A stretch of 64,000 nucleotides of DNA from assembly GCA_012719175.1 (NCBI GenBank), contig JAAYAX010000015.1:1-64000 (forward strand), given 5' to 3'. Position 1 is the stretch's first letter; each line of letters begins with the position of its first letter. The notes below the pieces were generated by a model that saw only the letters and a list, made by a program, of their open reading frames with translations, did not search any database and had not been told where the DNA came from. Made by a program: the position numbers and the translations under genes. Below are positions 1 to 40,111 of the stretch, piece after piece. Source of the stretch: Methanomassiliicoccus sp. GTDB lineage: Archaea; Thermoplasmatota; Thermoplasmata; Methanomassiliicoccales; Methanomassiliicoccaceae.

Positions 1-423
1 CTGTTCCTTGAGCTGCGTTAGCTCGTTCTTTGTAGTGTCCAGTTCTCCAGTGGCTGCAATGTGCTGTTCCTTGAGCTGCGTTAGCTCGTTCTTTGTAGTG
101 TCCAGTTCTTCTGTCGTTGACTGGTACTTCTCATTCAGCTGAGCAAGCTCGTTCTTTGTGGAACTTAGCTCCTCGGTCGTTGACTGGTACTTCTCATTCA
201 GCTGAGCAAGCTCGTTCTTTGTGGAATCCAGCTCTTCCCTTGTGCTGAGGTACTGTTCTTTTATCTGAGCAAGCTCGATCTTTGTGGAGTCCAGCTCCTC
301 GGTGGATGTTAGATGCTGTTCCTTGAGCTGGGCCAATTCGTTCTTTGTGGAGTCCAGCTCCTCGGTGGATGTTAGATGCTGTTCCTTGAGCTGTTCGAGG
401 TCCGACCTCGTCGTCTCGAGGTC
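1..423 (-). repeat. Tandem 63-bp (21-residue) coiled-coil repeats
   Basis: Read on the minus strand, units begin at 423, 360, 297, 234, 171, 108 and 45, each exactly 63 bp. The consensus is ELDSTKNELAQLKEQ followed by HLTSTE. Twenty-one residues equal three heptads, so copies can be added without breaking coiled-coil register. Adjacent units 171-234 and 108-171 are nearly identical, which indicates recent duplication. The array continues past base 1. Confidence 0.93.
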
Positions 424-3400
424 GCTTCTTATTGACTCCAGCTCCTGGTTCCGGTGCTCCAGGTCCTCAGTGGTCCTGGACTTCTCTTCCAGCACCTGGG
501 CCAGTTCTGTCCTCACCTCATTTAGCGTGGTCACAGTGGCTACGAGCTCCACGCCCTTGGCCTCCAGTTCACCATTGGATAGCTGGTTCCTCTCCTGGAG
601 CTGAGATAACTCCGCCTTTAAACCTTCAGCCTCACCTGTGACGGCGGCCAGTTCCTTCATCTTGTTCTCGAGGTCCTCTGACGTAGCGTTCTGCCTTACC
701 GTGAGCTGGGTAAACTCTTCCTTGACAGCTGACAGTTCCCCACTGACGCTCTCCAGCTCGCTGTTCTTCCTTTCCAATTCTTCTGTGGAACGCTGCTGAA
801 GCTCCCTGATCTGGGCTAGCTCCGACCGGGCAGCCTCTAGCTCCTCGGTGGTCGTGGTGAGCGCCTGTTCCTTCTCATCCCGCTCTTGAGCGGTTATCTG
901 GTGCTGGTCCTTCTCCTGTGCAAGGTCCTGGACCATCTTGTCGAGTTCTTCCTTTACGAGCTGGTGTTCGGTACGGACCTCTTCCAGTTCCTTTATTCGC
1001 AGCTCCAGCTCCTCCTTGTTCAGCTGATGTTGGTCCCTTTCCAGGGTCAGGTCCGATCCCCTCTGCTCCAGTTCACGGGTCAGCACGAACACCTGGCTCT
1101 GGGCGCGGTTCAGGTCCTGGACCAGGGCGTTCTTCTCAGCCACGGCCGCACTAGCCTTGGTTGCCAAGCCCTCGCCCTCTGCCTTAGATGCTGCCAGCCA
1201 TGATTCTCTCTGCGATAGTGCCTCGCGGAGGCCGAAGATGATGGTCTCGTTGACGTTCTGGTCCGAGGTGAGCTGTGTCCTTTGTTTCATCAGCTCCCCC
1301 AGTCTGCCCTTATGGCCATCGACCTCTGTGAGAGCCGAGACCAGCTGCTCCTCCTTGAGCTTCCGCTCCTCTTCCTCGCGCTCCGCCTGGGCCCGCAGCT
1401 CCTCGATCTCCCGGTCCTTGACCCGGGCGAGGTCGTCCAGCTGCTCCTTGGCCCATATTAGTTGAGAGTTCTCGCCCTCCAGCCTCCCCTTGGCATCTTG
1501 GAGCGTCTGCCGCTCCTCCGTTAGGGTGACCACTTCCGCTTTGGATGCTTCCAGTTGAGCACTGAGGTCTGCTGCGAGCGCGCTCTTTTCCTCCAGCTGT
1601 TCCTTGATCCGCGCATTCTCTTCGCACGCGCAATCCAGCTCGTCCTGCTTCCGCTCCATTTCGTCGGACAGCCCTGCAGCCTCATCCTCCTTGGAGGAAA
1701 GCTCGCTCTTGAGCGCCTTTACGGCAGCGAGGGCCTCGGTGAGGCTGGTAGACTTCGATTCCAGCTCTTCGGTAGTCTGGGTCAGGTCCTTGGTCCTGAG
1801 GTCCAGGTCCTCTTTCGCTTTCAGGTGCAGGTCCGTGACCTGTTTCAGCTCTTCATCTCTAGAGGCCAGGGACTCGTTGGCCTTCTGCAGATCGGCGTTG
1901 AGCTTCTCCACCTGCTGATGCAGCGTTATGAGCTCCTCGGCCTTCTGCGCCACGGCCTCCTCTACTCCGGAGAGGGATTCCCTTACCCCGCCCAGCTCCA
2001 AGGTTTGGGACTTGAAGCTCGCGGCCAGTGTTAACAGCTCCCCTTCTTTCCCCTGCAGCGCCTTCTGTACCTCGGAGAGAGCGCTCTGGGTGGTGATCAG
2101 TTCAGCATCCTTGTCCTCCAGGTTCTGCCGGATCAGGGTCAGGCTGGCCTTCTGCTCCTCGAGCTCGGCCTGTTTGGCCTCGGCCGCGGCCCGGGCCTCC
2201 GTAAGCTCCTCTTCCCGCATTTGCAGGGCATCGCGCAGCCCGCCGAGCTCCTCAGAGGTCTTGGTCAGCTCTGCCTGGCTTGACCTCAGTGATTCCTTTA
2301 TGGACTGGGTCGCGGTGTCCCGCTCCGCCTGCTGGGCCTTGAGCTGAGATATGGCCACCTCCAGCGACTCGATACGGCTGTCCCTCTCCTGCACCTTGGC
2401 CAACGATTCCTCCACCCGTTTGTGGCTCTCCTCGATGGCCTGCTTGGCGGTGATCCGACCTGTGATGTCACGGTCTATGCCCCGGTATCCCAGGAACTTG
2501 CCGTCCCTGCCGAAGTGGGGCATGCCGTTCATCTCGAGGTAGACAGTGCGGCCATCTGGATGCTTGGCCTGCTTCTCCAAGGCGGTAATGGGTACGTGCG
2601 CCGCCATGGTCTTGGTGAGAATGTTGGAGATGTGCTCCGCGCTTTCCTTGGTTATGAGGTCCAGGGGGGAGCGGCCCACAACGTCCTCGGGCAGTAGGCC
2701 CAGTAATTCCTTGACCCTCGCCGAGGACCAAGTGTAGGCCCCGTTCTCGTCCATCTCCCAGGACCAGTCCGAGGACCGCTCCGAGAGATCGTTGAACCTT
2801 ATCTGCTGCTTGTCCAGTTCCTCCTCTGCGGACTTCCGGGCCGCGTTCTCCTCGCTCAGACGTCGGCGTATCTCATCTATCGCCTGGTCTCGGTTCTGGA
2901 TGTCCGATTCGGCACTGTTGTGGAGGCGGATGCTATCGAGCATCCGTTCCAGCTCCAGCTCCGAGTAGTCGTCACGGAGCAGTCTGTCCGTGGGTACGTA
3001 GAACATGTTGTTGTTTATCGAGCCCTCAGAGACCACCCGGGGGTGGGCATGCAAGGCGACTATCAGAGAGGACGGAGAGAATATCCTCCGATCGTACTGG
3101 CAGATGATCCTCAGGGATATGCCAGGATTGAACACGTTCAATTTGGCCTCATATTCCGGCCACTTCTCCACACCGGCCACCTTCTCCTGGGTCCATGTCA
3201 TGTCGGATATGATCCGCATGGCCGTGAACCCGTAGGACTTGGCGAGCTCGGCCACGTTGCCGATGACCTTCATGGTCCAATCGGGGTCGAAGTATCCCCG
3301 CTTGAAGTACATCTCCTTCTTGTGAGTGAGGATCAGCCCTCCGTTGCCGATGGCCTTGTCCACATCGATGTTCTCGGCCTTCAGCGCCTCCACCATGTCG

Positions 3401-3585
3401 GTGTCGTCCTCCTCGTTGGAGATATATAAGCAGATCTCACCCTTCTCCAGACCTACGCGTATCAACGGTGTGACCGCCGAGAGCCGCTCCTCTGGGGTCT
3501 CGTAGATTAGGGCTATGTGATCTCCAATTAAATGCTGGTCGGCCTCTGATCCCGTCAAGGGCCGGTCATTGTTCATATTGACCAT
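1..3585 (-). CDS. MEDS-PAS sensor with giant coiled coil (partial, C-terminus outside window)
   Basis: The frame is open from the ATG at 3585 to base 1 without a stop, giving at least 1195 residues; the C-terminus lies outside the window. The first ~200 residues match the MEDS sensory domain (start HIALIYET, then GLEKGEICLYIS), known from DcmR and methanogen sensors. A PAS domain follows at roughly 265-390 (WSWEMDENG, then DITGRI). The rest, over 800 residues, is almost pure Glu/Leu/Lys/Gln/Ser coiled coil that ends in tandem 21-residue units. The start at 3585 has an AGGAGG site at 3595-3600; an in-frame ATG at 3594 lies inside that site and is unlikely. No kinase or DNA-binding domain is seen in this part. 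Inferred role: a cytoplasmic sensor or scaffold whose signal travels along a long rod. Family placement of the N-terminus is fairly sure; the output is unknown. Confidence 0.85.
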   Translation of the reverse strand, partial: MVNMNNDRPLTGSEADQHLIGDHIALIYETPEERLSAVTPLIRVGLEKGEICLYISNEEDDTDMVEALKAENIDVDKAIGNGGLILTHKKEMYFKRGYFDPDWTMKVIGNVAELAKSYGFTAMRIISDMTWTQEKVAGVEKWPEYEAKLNVFNPGISLRIICQYDRRIFSPSSLIVALHAHPRVVSEGSINNNMFYVPTDRLLRDDYSELELERMLDSIRLHNSAESDIQNRDQAIDEIRRRLSEENAARKSAEEELDKQQIRFNDLSERSSDWSWEMDENGAYTWSSARVKELLGLLPEDVVGRSPLDLITKESAEHISNILTKTMAAHVPITALEKQAKHPDGRTVYLEMNGMPHFGRDGKFLGYRGIDRDITGRITAKQAIEESHKRVEESLAKVQERDSRIESLEVAISQLKAQQAERDTATQSIKESLRSSQAELTKTSEELGGLRDALQMREEELTEARAAAEAKQAELEEQKASLTLIRQNLEDKDAELITTQSALSEVQKALQGKEGELLTLAASFKSQTLELGGVRESLSGVEEAVAQKAEELITLHQQVEKLNADLQKANESLASRDEELKQVTDLHLKAKEDLDLRTKDLTQTTEELESKSTSLTEALAAVKALKSELSSKEDEAAGLSDEMERKQDELDCACEENARIKEQLEEKSALAADLSAQLEASKAEVVTLTEERQTLQDAKGRLEGENSQLIWAKEQLDDLARVKDREIEELRAQAEREEEERKLKEEQLVSALTEVDGHKGRLGELMKQRTQLTSDQNVNETIIFGLREALSQRESWLAASKAEGEGLATKASAAVAEKNALVQDLNRAQSQVFVLTRELEQRGSDLTLERDQHQLNKEELELRIKELEEVRTEHQLVKEELDKMVQDLAQEKDQHQITAQERDEKEQALTTTTEELEAARSELAQIRELQQRSTEELERKNSELESVSGELSAVKEEFTQLTVRQNATSEDLENKMKELAAVTGEAEGLKAELSQLQERNQLSNGELEAKGVELVATVTTLNEVRTELAQVLEEKSRTTEDLEHRNQELESIRSDLETTRSDLEQLKEQHLTSTEELDSTKNELAQLKEQHLTSTEELDSTKIELAQIKEQYLSTREELDSTKNELAQLNEKYQSTTEELSSTKNELAQLNEKYQSTTEELDTTKNELTQLKEQHIAATGELDTTKNELTQLKEQ

Positions 3586-37003: not shown

Positions 37004-39919
37004 ATGTGGGCGTTCATACTTTGCATCATCTATGTTATTTTCGCCTTCGCCTGCCTCGCCGTCCTCATAGCCCTTTACGATAGGCGACCGTTGCGGATAA
37101 GGTCCGGACTGGTGATGTTGCCGGCCTGCGCTCTGATATCGGTCGGCGCCATTCTGCAGATGTTCCTACCCTACCAAGGCACCCTCCAGGTTCTCTACTA
37201 TTTTAACGTCCTGATGTTTGTCGTCGTCTACACTGGCTTCATATTCTTCGTGGGCGAGTTCACGGGCCGCTTCGACCCCCTGGAGAGGAAGAACCTGGCC
37301 CTCATTCTGATCGTCCCAGTTCTAGCCGCGTTCTCTATCATCACCGATAACTGGCTACACCTCTGGAACTCCAATTTCTACCTATCTACGCTGCCCGACT
37401 ACGAGGTCCCCTTCCTCCTGTGGGATTTCTCGTACATGAACATAGTGTGGTCTATCTTCTGCTTCGCCTCGGGGGCCGTGCTCCTGTACTATCTGAGCAG
37501 AACATTGCACAGGACAGGTAACTGGATCTTGCTCGCCGTGTTCTACCTTGGTGCCGCCATGTGCGTCACCTTGAACATAATGGCGTTCTTCACAGTGGAC
37601 CTGATGGTCATGCCCGTCGATGGCCTAACCTTTACTCTGGGAATCCTGTCCTTCTACATCAGTGCCTTGGTCTTCGGTATGTTCGACATCGCGCCTGTGG
37701 CCCGCAAGAAGATGTTGGACCTGATGAAGGATGCCATTTTCGTCCTGGACTCGGAGGGTATGATAAACGACGTCAACACCAGCGGTCTGAAGCTCCTCCG
37801 CAGGGAAAGAAAGGATGTCATCCTCCAGAAGTCCGATATCCTCCTAGAAAGGTTCCCCGCCCTGGATCACTTTCTAAAGGAACCGGAAGAGAAGGGGGAG
37901 ACGGAGTTCAAGGATGTCGATGATCGCACCTTCGAGGCCAAGGTGAGCGTCTTCGATTACGGGAGGATGAAGAAGACTGGGCGGATGCTTGTCCTCAAGG
38001 ATGTCACGCTGAGCAGGCAGATAGAGAAAAAATTCCGCGAGGCTGAGTTCCAGATGAAGCTGGCCGATACCAACCGGAGATACAGGACCATCATCGAGAA
38101 CCAGACCGAGGCCATCCTGACCTTCGACAGGAACGGCCAGATCACATTCTTTAACCCCGTCTTCGAGAGGATCGCGGAGAGGAGCACCAAGCAGATGGCC
38201 GATTCGAGGATCGGTGACCTGCTGAGCGAGGATGACGACAGGGCGTTGTGGGATCGGATAGAGAAGGCCACTCCCGAAGCCCCGGTCTTCCACTTCGAAC
38301 ACGTCGTCAGCCTCCTCGACGGGTCAGACATGTGGATCCATTGGCAGGGGAAGGTCCACTTTTCCGAGAGCGGAGAGCTGACCGAGGTCCAGACGGCCGG
38401 CATCGATATCACGGAAAAGAGGAAGAAAGAGGCCGAATACCAGGCCATCGTGGAATGCCAGAAAGAGCTGATCGTGCGCCGGCAGAGGGGGGGAACCATA
38501 ACCTTCGCCAACCAAGCTTTCTCCGAGTTCTACGGGATCCCCAACGAGAAGCTGATAGGGAGCACTTTCTTCCCTTCGGTAGACGAGGAAGACAACCTGA
38601 GATTCCGGGAGGCGCTGAGGTGCCTCACTCCTGGACTTCCGGACAGCGACCCTGTGAAGCTCAGGATCCTCCGGGGGCAGGACGATCTCAGGACCACCGA
38701 GTGGAGACTCCGGGGCATCTTCGATTCCAAGGGCCAGATGGTGGAGTATCAGACGGTGGGCAATGATATCACAGAGAAGTTGCGGATGGAGCAGGAGCTC
38801 AATAAGACGCAGAAGTTGGAGTCCCTGGGGGTTTTGGCAGGGGGCATCGCCCATGACTTCAACAATCTGCTGACGTCAATAATCAGCAACATCGAGGTGG
38901 CGGCCAAGGACATCCCCTCGGGAGAGCGAAGCAGGTATCGTCTGGAGGAGGCCGTCCGATCTGCATTGAACGCCAGGAACCTCACCCAGCAGCTCCTTAC
39001 ATACTCCAAGGGAGGTAAGCCCGTGAAGGAGCCGACCGACCTGGGGGAGCTCCTCCAGAAGACCATCGAGTTCACCTTGACCGGCACCAATGTGAGGGCC
39101 GATTACCGCATCGCCGAAGACCTCCGCCCGATAAGTGCGGACCGCTTCCAGATCGAGCAGGTGATCAATAACCTGATCATCAATGCGGTGCAGGCGATGC
39201 CGGAGGGGGGCAAGATCTTCGTCAAGGCCTCCAATTCCGACAGGTACTTCCGCTCGCTCGACAAGGAGGGGGGCCAAGGGTTCATCAAGGTAAAGATCAC
39301 CGATCAGGGACCGGGGATCCCCGCCGACGTACTGGGCAAGATCTTCGACCCTTTCTTCACCACTAAGGACAACGGAACCGGGCTGGGGCTGTCGACCGTG
39401 CAGTCCATCGTCAAGAACCACGGGGGATTCATCGACGTGGAATCGGAGCCCGGGTTGGGAACGTCATTCAACATCTATCTCCCGACCAGCAATGCTCCGG
39501 CCATTTCGGCACCGGAGGCGGTGGGGAGCGAGGGGCAAGTCAGGGCTTCCAGGATCCTCATCATGGACGACGAGGAGGCCATCCTGGAGGTCCTCTCCAC
39601 CATCCTCATGGACCTGGGTCACAGTGTGGAGATGGCCCGGACAGGAGAGGAGGCCATCGAACAGGTCTCACGTTCGCTGACCGAAGGCAGGCTTTTCGAC
39701 CTTCTCATCATGGACCTGACCATCCGGGGAGGGATGGGGGGCAAGGACGCCATCCAGGAGATCCTCAAGTTGGACGGAAGCGTCAAGGCCATGGTATCCA
39801 GCGGCTATTCCAACGACCCGGTGATGTCCGAGCCCCGGAAGTACGGGTTCATCGATTTCCTTCCCAAGCCCTATTCCATCCAGGACCTGAAGGACAAGCT
39901 GGCGCGGCTCCTCCTCTAG
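37004..39919 (+). CDS. 7TM hybrid histidine kinase with C-terminal receiver
   Basis: A 971-residue membrane sensor. Residues ~1-230 form an N-terminal seven-helix histidine-kinase domain (7TM type). Three PAS-like segments follow (~240-345, 360-475, 480-595). HisKA has His617 in AHDFNN, then an HATPase with INNLIINAVQA, DQGPGIP and GTGLGLSTV. The end (~850-970) is a receiver with MDDEE and phospho-acceptor Asp904 in LLIMDLT, and Lys in FLPKPYS. Unlike its island neighbours it uses the standard HD-type box and carries the receiver at the C-terminus. The 231-bp gap upstream is AT-rich (TTATATTTTAAG at ~36894-36905). Confidence 0.92.
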   Translation: MWAFILCIIYVIFAFACLAVLIALYDRRPLRIRSGLVMLPACALISVGAILQMFLPYQGTLQVLYYFNVLMFVVVYTGFIFFVGEFTGRFDPLERKNLALILIVPVLAAFSIITDNWLHLWNSNFYLSTLPDYEVPFLLWDFSYMNIVWSIFCFASGAVLLYYLSRTLHRTGNWILLAVFYLGAAMCVTLNIMAFFTVDLMVMPVDGLTFTLGILSFYISALVFGMFDIAPVARKKMLDLMKDAIFVLDSEGMINDVNTSGLKLLRRERKDVILQKSDILLERFPALDHFLKEPEEKGETEFKDVDDRTFEAKVSVFDYGRMKKTGRMLVLKDVTLSRQIEKKFREAEFQMKLADTNRRYRTIIENQTEAILTFDRNGQITFFNPVFERIAERSTKQMADSRIGDLLSEDDDRALWDRIEKATPEAPVFHFEHVVSLLDGSDMWIHWQGKVHFSESGELTEVQTAGIDITEKRKKEAEYQAIVECQKELIVRRQRGGTITFANQAFSEFYGIPNEKLIGSTFFPSVDEEDNLRFREALRCLTPGLPDSDPVKLRILRGQDDLRTTEWRLRGIFDSKGQMVEYQTVGNDITEKLRMEQELNKTQKLESLGVLAGGIAHDFNNLLTSIISNIEVAAKDIPSGERSRYRLEEAVRSALNARNLTQQLLTYSKGGKPVKEPTDLGELLQKTIEFTLTGTNVRADYRIAEDLRPISADRFQIEQVINNLIINAVQAMPEGGKIFVKASNSDRYFRSLDKEGGQGFIKVKITDQGPGIPADVLGKIFDPFFTTKDNGTGLGLSTVQSIVKNHGGFIDVESEPGLGTSFNIYLPTSNAPAISAPEAVGSEGQVRASRILIMDDEEAILEVLSTILMDLGHSVEMARTGEEAIEQVSRSLTEGRLFDLLIMDLTIRGGMGGKDAIQEILKLDGSVKAMVSSGYSNDPVMSEPRKYGFIDFLPKPYSIQDLKDKLARLLL

Positions 39920-40111
39920 TAATTAGTCATTATGCCATTATCGGAGCGCGCCTCGTTCCCCGTTAGTACGGCCGTTGACCACATTTATCCATCCGTTTGT
40001 ATTATCTTTCATGATAACATACCCGGTGCTGCACCGTTGAGGGATGGGGGACGTGCTAACGCCGGTGCTATCGCATCGGTGGGTAATAGCACGGATTGCA
40101 GGTGATTCAAA

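What the first reader, a model, noticed from the sequence alone, without database searches (positions are those of the whole stretch)
1..3585. Giant MEDS-PAS sensor with an expanding 21-residue coiled-coil array
The MEDS and PAS domains are followed by more than 800 residues of coiled coil that ends in exactly 63-bp tandem units, the last copies nearly identical. Twenty-one residues are three heptads, so the rod can grow or shrink without losing register. MEDS proteins are normally short sensor-kinase parts; a ruler-like rod behind one is unusual and could be a length-variable scaffold or filament linking a methanogenesis-related signal to a distant site.
Basis: partly seen in the sequence, partly recalled or inferred. 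Interest (0 to 1): 0.75.

Follow-up and report, generated by a model that had tools for sequence, protein, structure and literature searches.

The report
Archaeal sensor protein with heptad-stretched rod
A methanogen-lineage archaeon carries a soluble signalling protein in which two sensor ends are joined by a helical rod of roughly 50 to 140 nanometres, and close relatives have rods of very different length that nearly always differ by whole seven-residue turns, a natural experiment on how signals pass along coiled coils.

Summary
The minus-strand gene at 3585..1 encodes MEDS, PAS and 820 residues of coiled coil, ending at the contig edge in a 63-bp array. Its other half lies at the end of contig C3 of the same genome (exact 109-bp overlap, same frame, same synteny as an intact relative). 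The joined protein is at least 1629 aa: MEDS–PAS–rod–PAS–kinase-like helical hairpin–receiver. There is no ATPase domain, and in this species no phospho-histidine. It looks like a hybrid histidine kinase that lost its catalytic half.

All GTDB-family members with a readable gene have this architecture. PAS-to-PAS spacing runs from 348 to 974 residues. Four close alleles differ only by whole 21-residue units (2, 3, 4 and at least 8). Seven of eleven spacings are equal modulo 7, and in those one heptad register runs through the rod. The other four show internal register shifts, mostly stutter-type.

Best reading: an in-register parallel dimer strut that couples the N-terminal sensor to a PAS/receiver end serving as a docking or phospho-acceptor platform. 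Architecture and length behaviour are shown; dimerisation, signal passage and ligand are inferred. I found no evidence for a filament or methanogenesis link. New variant of a known kind: heptad-quantised signalling linkers, extreme in length.

The parts
1..3585 (-). 5' part (1195 codons) of the giant MEDS-PAS-rod-PAS-pseudoDHp-REC gene; the remaining 434 codons (at least) lie on contig C3 of the same genome (G000:C3, about 46266 to the contig end at 47676, minus strand)
   Evidence: synteny with the intact gene in G003
3040..3522 (-). MEDS domain (KaiC/RecA-like fold, classed as inactive KaiC in the archaeal census)
   Evidence: PF14417, 121-127 bits; weak sequence match to RecA-fusion PDB entries; PMC5847659
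2743..2934 (-). short coiled coil between MEDS and PAS
   Evidence: COILS-type score
2455..2778 (-). first PAS domain
   Evidence: PAS_4, PAS and PAS_9 above cut-off
1..2460 (-). coiled-coil rod in one unbroken heptad register apart from a short local ambiguity; 820 residues in the window, about 950 when joined
1..384 (-). 63-bp (21-residue, three-heptad) tandem array, cut by the contig end; joined minimum is eight units
   Evidence: TRF; units listed

Best explanation
The gene encodes a soluble receptor of at least 1629 aa, derived from a hybrid histidine kinase that lost its ATPase domain. MEDS and PAS sit at the N-terminus. A long, mostly unbroken, probably parallel dimeric coiled coil links them to a second PAS, a kinase-type helical hairpin (DHp) without its histidine, and a receiver domain that keeps its phospho-acceptor Asp. 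Proposed working: ligand or redox state at MEDS-PAS changes the helix pair. Because the register runs to the second PAS, that change can be passed along the rod and alter how the hairpin/receiver end docks, or is phosphorylated by, a kinase acting in trans. The rod lengthens and shortens by recombination between repeats (63-bp units here). Mostly whole-heptad changes survive, because others break the register between the PAS domains. Shown: architecture, length variation, register arithmetic, loss of catalytic parts. Inferred: dimer, signal passage, partner kinase, ligand.
For: Two contigs join by an exact 109-bp overlap in one frame, and the order agrees with the intact gene of G003. The domain order recurs as single ORFs of 1060-1615 aa across the family. 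PAS1-PAS2 spacings of 974, 869, 736, 687, 652, 505 and 400 residues are all 1 mod 7 (chance of 7 or more of 11 in one class about 0.0016, ignoring kinship). One register anchored at PAS1 is best in 88-100% of rod windows in those seven, and position a is 80-93% hydrophobic in the five counted. All indels among four close alleles are multiples of 21 residues. The pseudo-DHp aligns to DHp domains of hybrid kinases of the same genome (hhalign 93%, E 2.4e-7) and its receiver is 30-37% identical to theirs. KEYVIPEGRM is kept in 13 of 14 sequences, while the histidine is lost repeatedly. AlphaFold gives helix-PAS-helical hairpin-receiver (mean pLDDT 74.5). The review reports heptad-dependent PAS/LOV linker signalling.
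Against: No experiment. The rod's oligomeric state was not predicted (monomer models only), and I know of no demonstration that a signal travels 100 nm along a plain coiled coil in a sensor of this kind. Four of eleven orthologues carry register shifts, so strict 7n is not universal. Expansion of heptad repeats yields 7n changes by mutation alone, so selection for register is not proven. In g3 and G014 the receiver Lys is Arg, and in G008 the Asp is Gly, so phosphorylation cannot be general. The join assumes no extra repeat units between the contigs.
Confidence: 0.55

Rival explanations
1. The rod is a passive spacer or tether: it places the MEDS-PAS end and the PAS-receiver end at different cell sites, and its length is nearly neutral, drifting by unequal recombination of heptad repeats.
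For: Rod length varies almost threefold in orthologues, and neighbouring alleles differ by 1-2 units at 92-98% identity. Repeat-based mutation alone gives multiples of 7.
Against: Register is kept over more than 900 residues; exceptions are mostly 4-residue stutters, the mildest break, rather than random shifts. A tether would tolerate hinges.
Confidence: 0.25
2. It is a cytoskeleton-like filament or polar scaffold, similar in working to the receiver-plus-coiled-coil proteins FrzS/AglZ or to intermediate-filament-like bacterial proteins.
For: Long coiled coil joined to a receiver domain; FrzS-type pseudo-receivers localise proteins (PMC1974792). Receiver and DHp are partly degenerate here.
Against: The receiver lies at the other end and keeps its Asp in most genomes; domains at both ends are conserved signalling domains; no motility or assembly genes adjoin it.
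Confidence: 0.12
3. A decaying former kinase with no coherent function, the coiled coil growing by slippage.
For: ATPase domain missing, His lost, receiver residues eroding in g3.
Against: Intact frame in every complete orthologue; N-terminus 43-95% identical across most of the family (32% in G007), KEYVIPEGRM near-invariant, single-copy conserved place.
Confidence: 0.05

Closest known systems
Hybrid histidine kinases with C-terminal receiver (e.g. ORFs at C5, C6 and C15 of this genome)
   Same: PAS-DHp-receiver order; DHp hairpin and receiver are homologous
   Different: ATPase domain gone, phospho-histidine lost in this species, and a rod of about 950 residues before the second PAS
PadC phytochrome-diguanylate cyclases and YF1-type LOV kinases (heptad-quantised coiled-coil linkers; PMC9587094, PMC6798134)
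   Same: Sensor-effector linkers differ mostly by multiples of seven; exceptions fall in a few classes
   Different: Their linkers differ by a few heptads; here the linker is 348-974 residues and differs by up to 89 heptads
MEDS-domain sensors and signalling-helix proteins of methanogens (PF14417; PMC1592074)
   Same: MEDS, short helical linker, PAS
   Different: Strong full-length MEDS ORFs outside this family in 300 class genomes are at most 675 aa, save one MEDS-PAS-GAF-type protein of 1049 aa without the rod in its readable part
FrzS / AglZ of Myxococcus
   Same: Receiver plus long coiled coil, partly degenerate receiver
   Different: N-terminal pseudo-receiver lacking Asp, coil 258 residues in FrzS; no MEDS or PAS (PMC1974792)
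Chicken BG proteins
   Same: Heptad-coded coiled coil whose repeat number varies between alleles (27-38 heptads, PMC5938342)
   Different: Heptads are 21-nt exons in a receptor tail; unrelated protein

Membership tests
MEDS-domain proteins (PF14417) | MEDS profile above the curated cut-off | tested here: met
   121 bits against 29.8; also in G001, G003, G006, G007, G009
Hybrid histidine kinase | HATPase_c catalytic domain | tested here: not met
   absent between DHp hairpin and receiver in all orthologues examined
Hybrid histidine kinase | Phospho-acceptor histidine in the H-box | tested here: not met
   AHDLND in G001, G005, G006 (His kept); TALDDPL or AALDDPL in G000, G003, G004; Arg, Tyr or Asn in others
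Hybrid histidine kinase | C-terminal receiver with acidic pair, Asp, Thr/Ser, Lys | tested here: met
   DDD, IMDY, ATG and LLKPY in G000; Lys to Arg in g3 and G014; Asp to Gly in G008
Heptad-quantised sensor linkers (PadC/LOV type; comparison of working, not homology) | Linker length differences mostly multiples of seven with continuous register | tested here: met
   7 of 11 spacings 1 mod 7; unbroken register in those seven; others show internal shifts
Heptad-quantised sensor linkers (PadC/LOV type; comparison of working, not homology) | Signal-dependent change passes through the linker | not testable with these tools
   needs purified protein
Signalling helix (S-helix) | ERT signature in the central heptad | not tested
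   -
FrzS/AglZ-type pseudo-receiver coiled-coil proteins | N-terminal receiver lacking the Asp, followed by coiled coil | tested here: not met
   receiver is C-terminal and keeps the Asp
SMC/Rad50 | ABC-type ATPase heads | tested here: not met
   only coiled-coil matches far below cut-off; no head domain in Pfam
Intermediate-filament-like proteins | Self-assembly into filaments | not testable with these tools
   -

The most novel reading that the evidence does not exclude
The 63-bp array is a tuning device: strains change the length of a rod of about 100 nm in three-heptad steps, keeping sensor and output in register while changing the reach or strength of signalling. This would be a length-polymorphic long-distance allosteric strut in an archaeal receptor.
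Probability: 0.2. Interest if true: 0.75.

Novelty: new variant of a known kind. Interest (0 to 1): 0.5.

Why it matters
Engineered linkers have shown that PAS/LOV signalling depends on heptad phase, but the natural linkers studied are short and their length series small. Here one orthologous family gives eleven rods from 348 to 974 residues with the same ends, plus four close alleles that differ in length only by 21-residue units. That makes it directly testable whether phase alone, or also length, matters for signal passage in a coiled coil, and how far a conformational signal can travel. It also gives a family of archaeal receptors in which a hybrid kinase became a non-catalytic platform.

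Tried and rejected
Frame ending at base 1: rejected, the frame continues on C3. Chimeric join: rejected by exact overlap and synteny. Filing under SMC/Rad50 or eukaryotic coiled-coil families: sub-threshold coiled-coil matches only. Methanogenesis operon: no such neighbours. Partner enzyme: a PaaK-like AMP-forming ligase lies directly downstream in 8 of 11 genomes, but no orthologue was found in G000 or G003 and it is displaced in G009, so it is not an obligate partner. Reading the assembler word size from contig overlaps to learn whether the array is collapsed: overlaps of 59, 109, 117 and 122 differ, so undecided. The genome scan with the first 1195 residues found only the two nearest relatives, because most of its patterns fell in the rod. 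Pairwise indels in more distant rods are mostly multiples of 7, but the aligner favours this in repeats; I rely on spacings and register tracks instead.

Full report
1. The observation. The minus-strand frame from 3585 to base 1 is open. It begins with an ATG preceded by GGAGG and contains MEDS (121 bits) and PAS (43 bits) domains, then 820 residues of predicted coiled coil. Tandem Repeats Finder reports a 63-bp array at 1-393. Lag-21 identity across the joined rod is 0.28, against at most 0.134 in 100 shuffles. Unit-to-unit DNA identity is 62-89%, so 'nearly identical' overstates it. Weaker 21-residue periodicity reaches further back into the rod.

2. The missing half. The window starts at the first base of contig C15. 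A second match in the same genome lies at the very end of contig C3 and reads 470 residues in the same frame, 36 of them shared by the overlap. The two contig ends share exactly 109 bases. In the relative G003 (its contig matches Methanomassiliicoccus sp. QR_Bin.16) the gene is intact, with pdxT and lipid-synthesis genes on one side and a HAD-type phosphatase, msrB and oxidoreductase genes on the other. These are exactly the genes at the ends of C3 and C15. The joined protein is 1629 aa from ATG to stop. That is a minimum, since repeat units may be missing at the join.

3. Architecture. The second half holds a PAS domain (weak by profile: PAS_8 21.4 bits against a cut-off of 21.8), a helical hairpin and a receiver (35 bits against 30.2). 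AlphaFold on an alignment of twelve orthologues gives a long helix, a PAS-type sheet, a two-helix hairpin and a receiver fold (mean pLDDT 74.5); the PDB fold search returns receivers and a sequence profile finds PAS and receiver structures. The hairpin matches the DHp domain of three hybrid kinases of the same genome (hhalign 93% probability, E 2.4e-7), and the receiver is 30-37% identical to theirs. No ATPase domain lies between hairpin and receiver. The histidine of the H-box is kept in G001, G005, G006 and G014, but lost in this species and in others in several ways, while KEYVIPEGRM is nearly invariant. The simplest account is a hybrid kinase that lost its catalytic domain and kept the hairpin and receiver. 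The genome has 30 HATPase_c matches, so kinases that could act in trans exist. No segment looks transmembrane.

4. Family. Orthologues with the whole architecture occur in the GTDB family f1 as single frames of 1060-1615 aa; G004, G011 and G013 show parts on separate contigs, and in fragmentary G002 no orthologue was seen. Among 300 genomes of the class, strong full-length MEDS matches outside the family lie in frames of at most 675 aa. The one exception is G084, with 1049 aa, whose readable part is MEDS-PAS and GAF-like (by inspection) without the rod.

5. Length variation. Between the end of PAS1 and a fixed point in the next PAS, spacings are 974 (this genome, minimum), 869, 736, 687, 652, 505, 492, 464, 437, 400 and 348 residues (the G009 value of 505 was corrected by hand from the printed sequence). 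The closest alleles carry eight or more units (this genome), three (G003), four (G004 contig 18) and two (G004 contig 46). Every internal gap among them is a multiple of 21 residues, at identities of 81-98%. The two G004 variants may be strains in one bin or paralogues.

6. Register. Seven of the eleven spacings equal 1 modulo 7; seven or more in one class has a chance of about 0.0016 if the values were independent, which related sequences are not. They span the two branches of genus g1 plus G009 and G014 on the tree. Counting heptads from the end of PAS1 without any correction, position a is 80-93% hydrophobic along the rod in the five orthologues counted, and that register is the best of seven in 88-100% of windows in the seven orthologues. 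In G008, G012 and G007 the register shifts inside the rod in steps equal to 4-residue stutters, and in G010 by a net one residue. After these shifts the register at the second PAS is the same as in the other seven for G008, G010 and G012, and off by one for G007. Conserved register at the two ends is expected from homology of the ends; the informative point is that nearly all length change inside is heptad-neutral or stutter-like.

7. How it may work. Published work on LOV kinases and PadC cyclases shows that sensor-effector linkers signal through continuous coiled coils, that linker lengths cluster at multiples of seven, and that other spacings change the output (PMC6798134; PMC9587094). The same logic here implies a continuous helix pair of about 50-140 nm (0.1485 nm per residue) connecting MEDS-PAS with PAS-hairpin-receiver. 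Dimerisation, parallel orientation and signal passage are inferred. The output is most likely docking of, or phosphorylation by, another protein at the hairpin/receiver end; this is inferred from loss of catalysis with retention of the receiver Asp.

8. Alternatives. A passive tether explains the length variation but not the unbroken register. A filament or polar scaffold of the FrzS/AglZ kind is possible but has no specific support, and the receiver is at the other end and keeps its Asp. Repeat expansion by itself produces multiples of 7, so selection on register is suggested, not proven.

9. Novelty. The parts are known, and heptad-quantised linkers are known. The length, the allelic three-heptad array, the near-complete absence of register breaks over more than 900 residues, and the kinase-to-platform change in a family of Methanomassiliicoccus-related archaea were not found in the papers searched (the library lacks most subscription journals). 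I rate it a new variant of a known kind.

Noticed in passing
window about 37004-39920 (+): Hybrid histidine kinase with hydrophobic N-terminus, PAS domains, HDFNN H-box, ATPase and C-terminal receiver; similar ones at C5 and C6. The 2018 archaeal census reported hybrid kinases only in Methanomicrobia (PMC5847659), so this lineage extends that.
   Followed up: partly
L051 9910-11382 and equivalents in G005, G006, G007, G008, G010, G012, G014: PaaK-like AMP-forming ligase directly downstream of the giant gene in 8 of 11 genomes, absent as an orthologue from G000 and G003 and displaced in G009; DUF169 and radical SAM genes upstream.
   Followed up: partly
C-terminal hairpin of all orthologues: KEYVIPEGRM in the pseudo-DHp hairpin is nearly invariant although the phospho-histidine is lost several times, suggesting a docking surface.
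   Followed up: partly
L061 and L062 (G004 contigs 18 and 46): Two versions of the C-terminal half in one assembly, 92% identical and differing by two 21-residue units: strain mixture or paralogues.
   Followed up: no
L055 (G013 contig 10): Rod frame appears shifted near the contig start, with out-of-frame translation before the second PAS; probably a sequencing error in a fragmented assembly.
   Followed up: no
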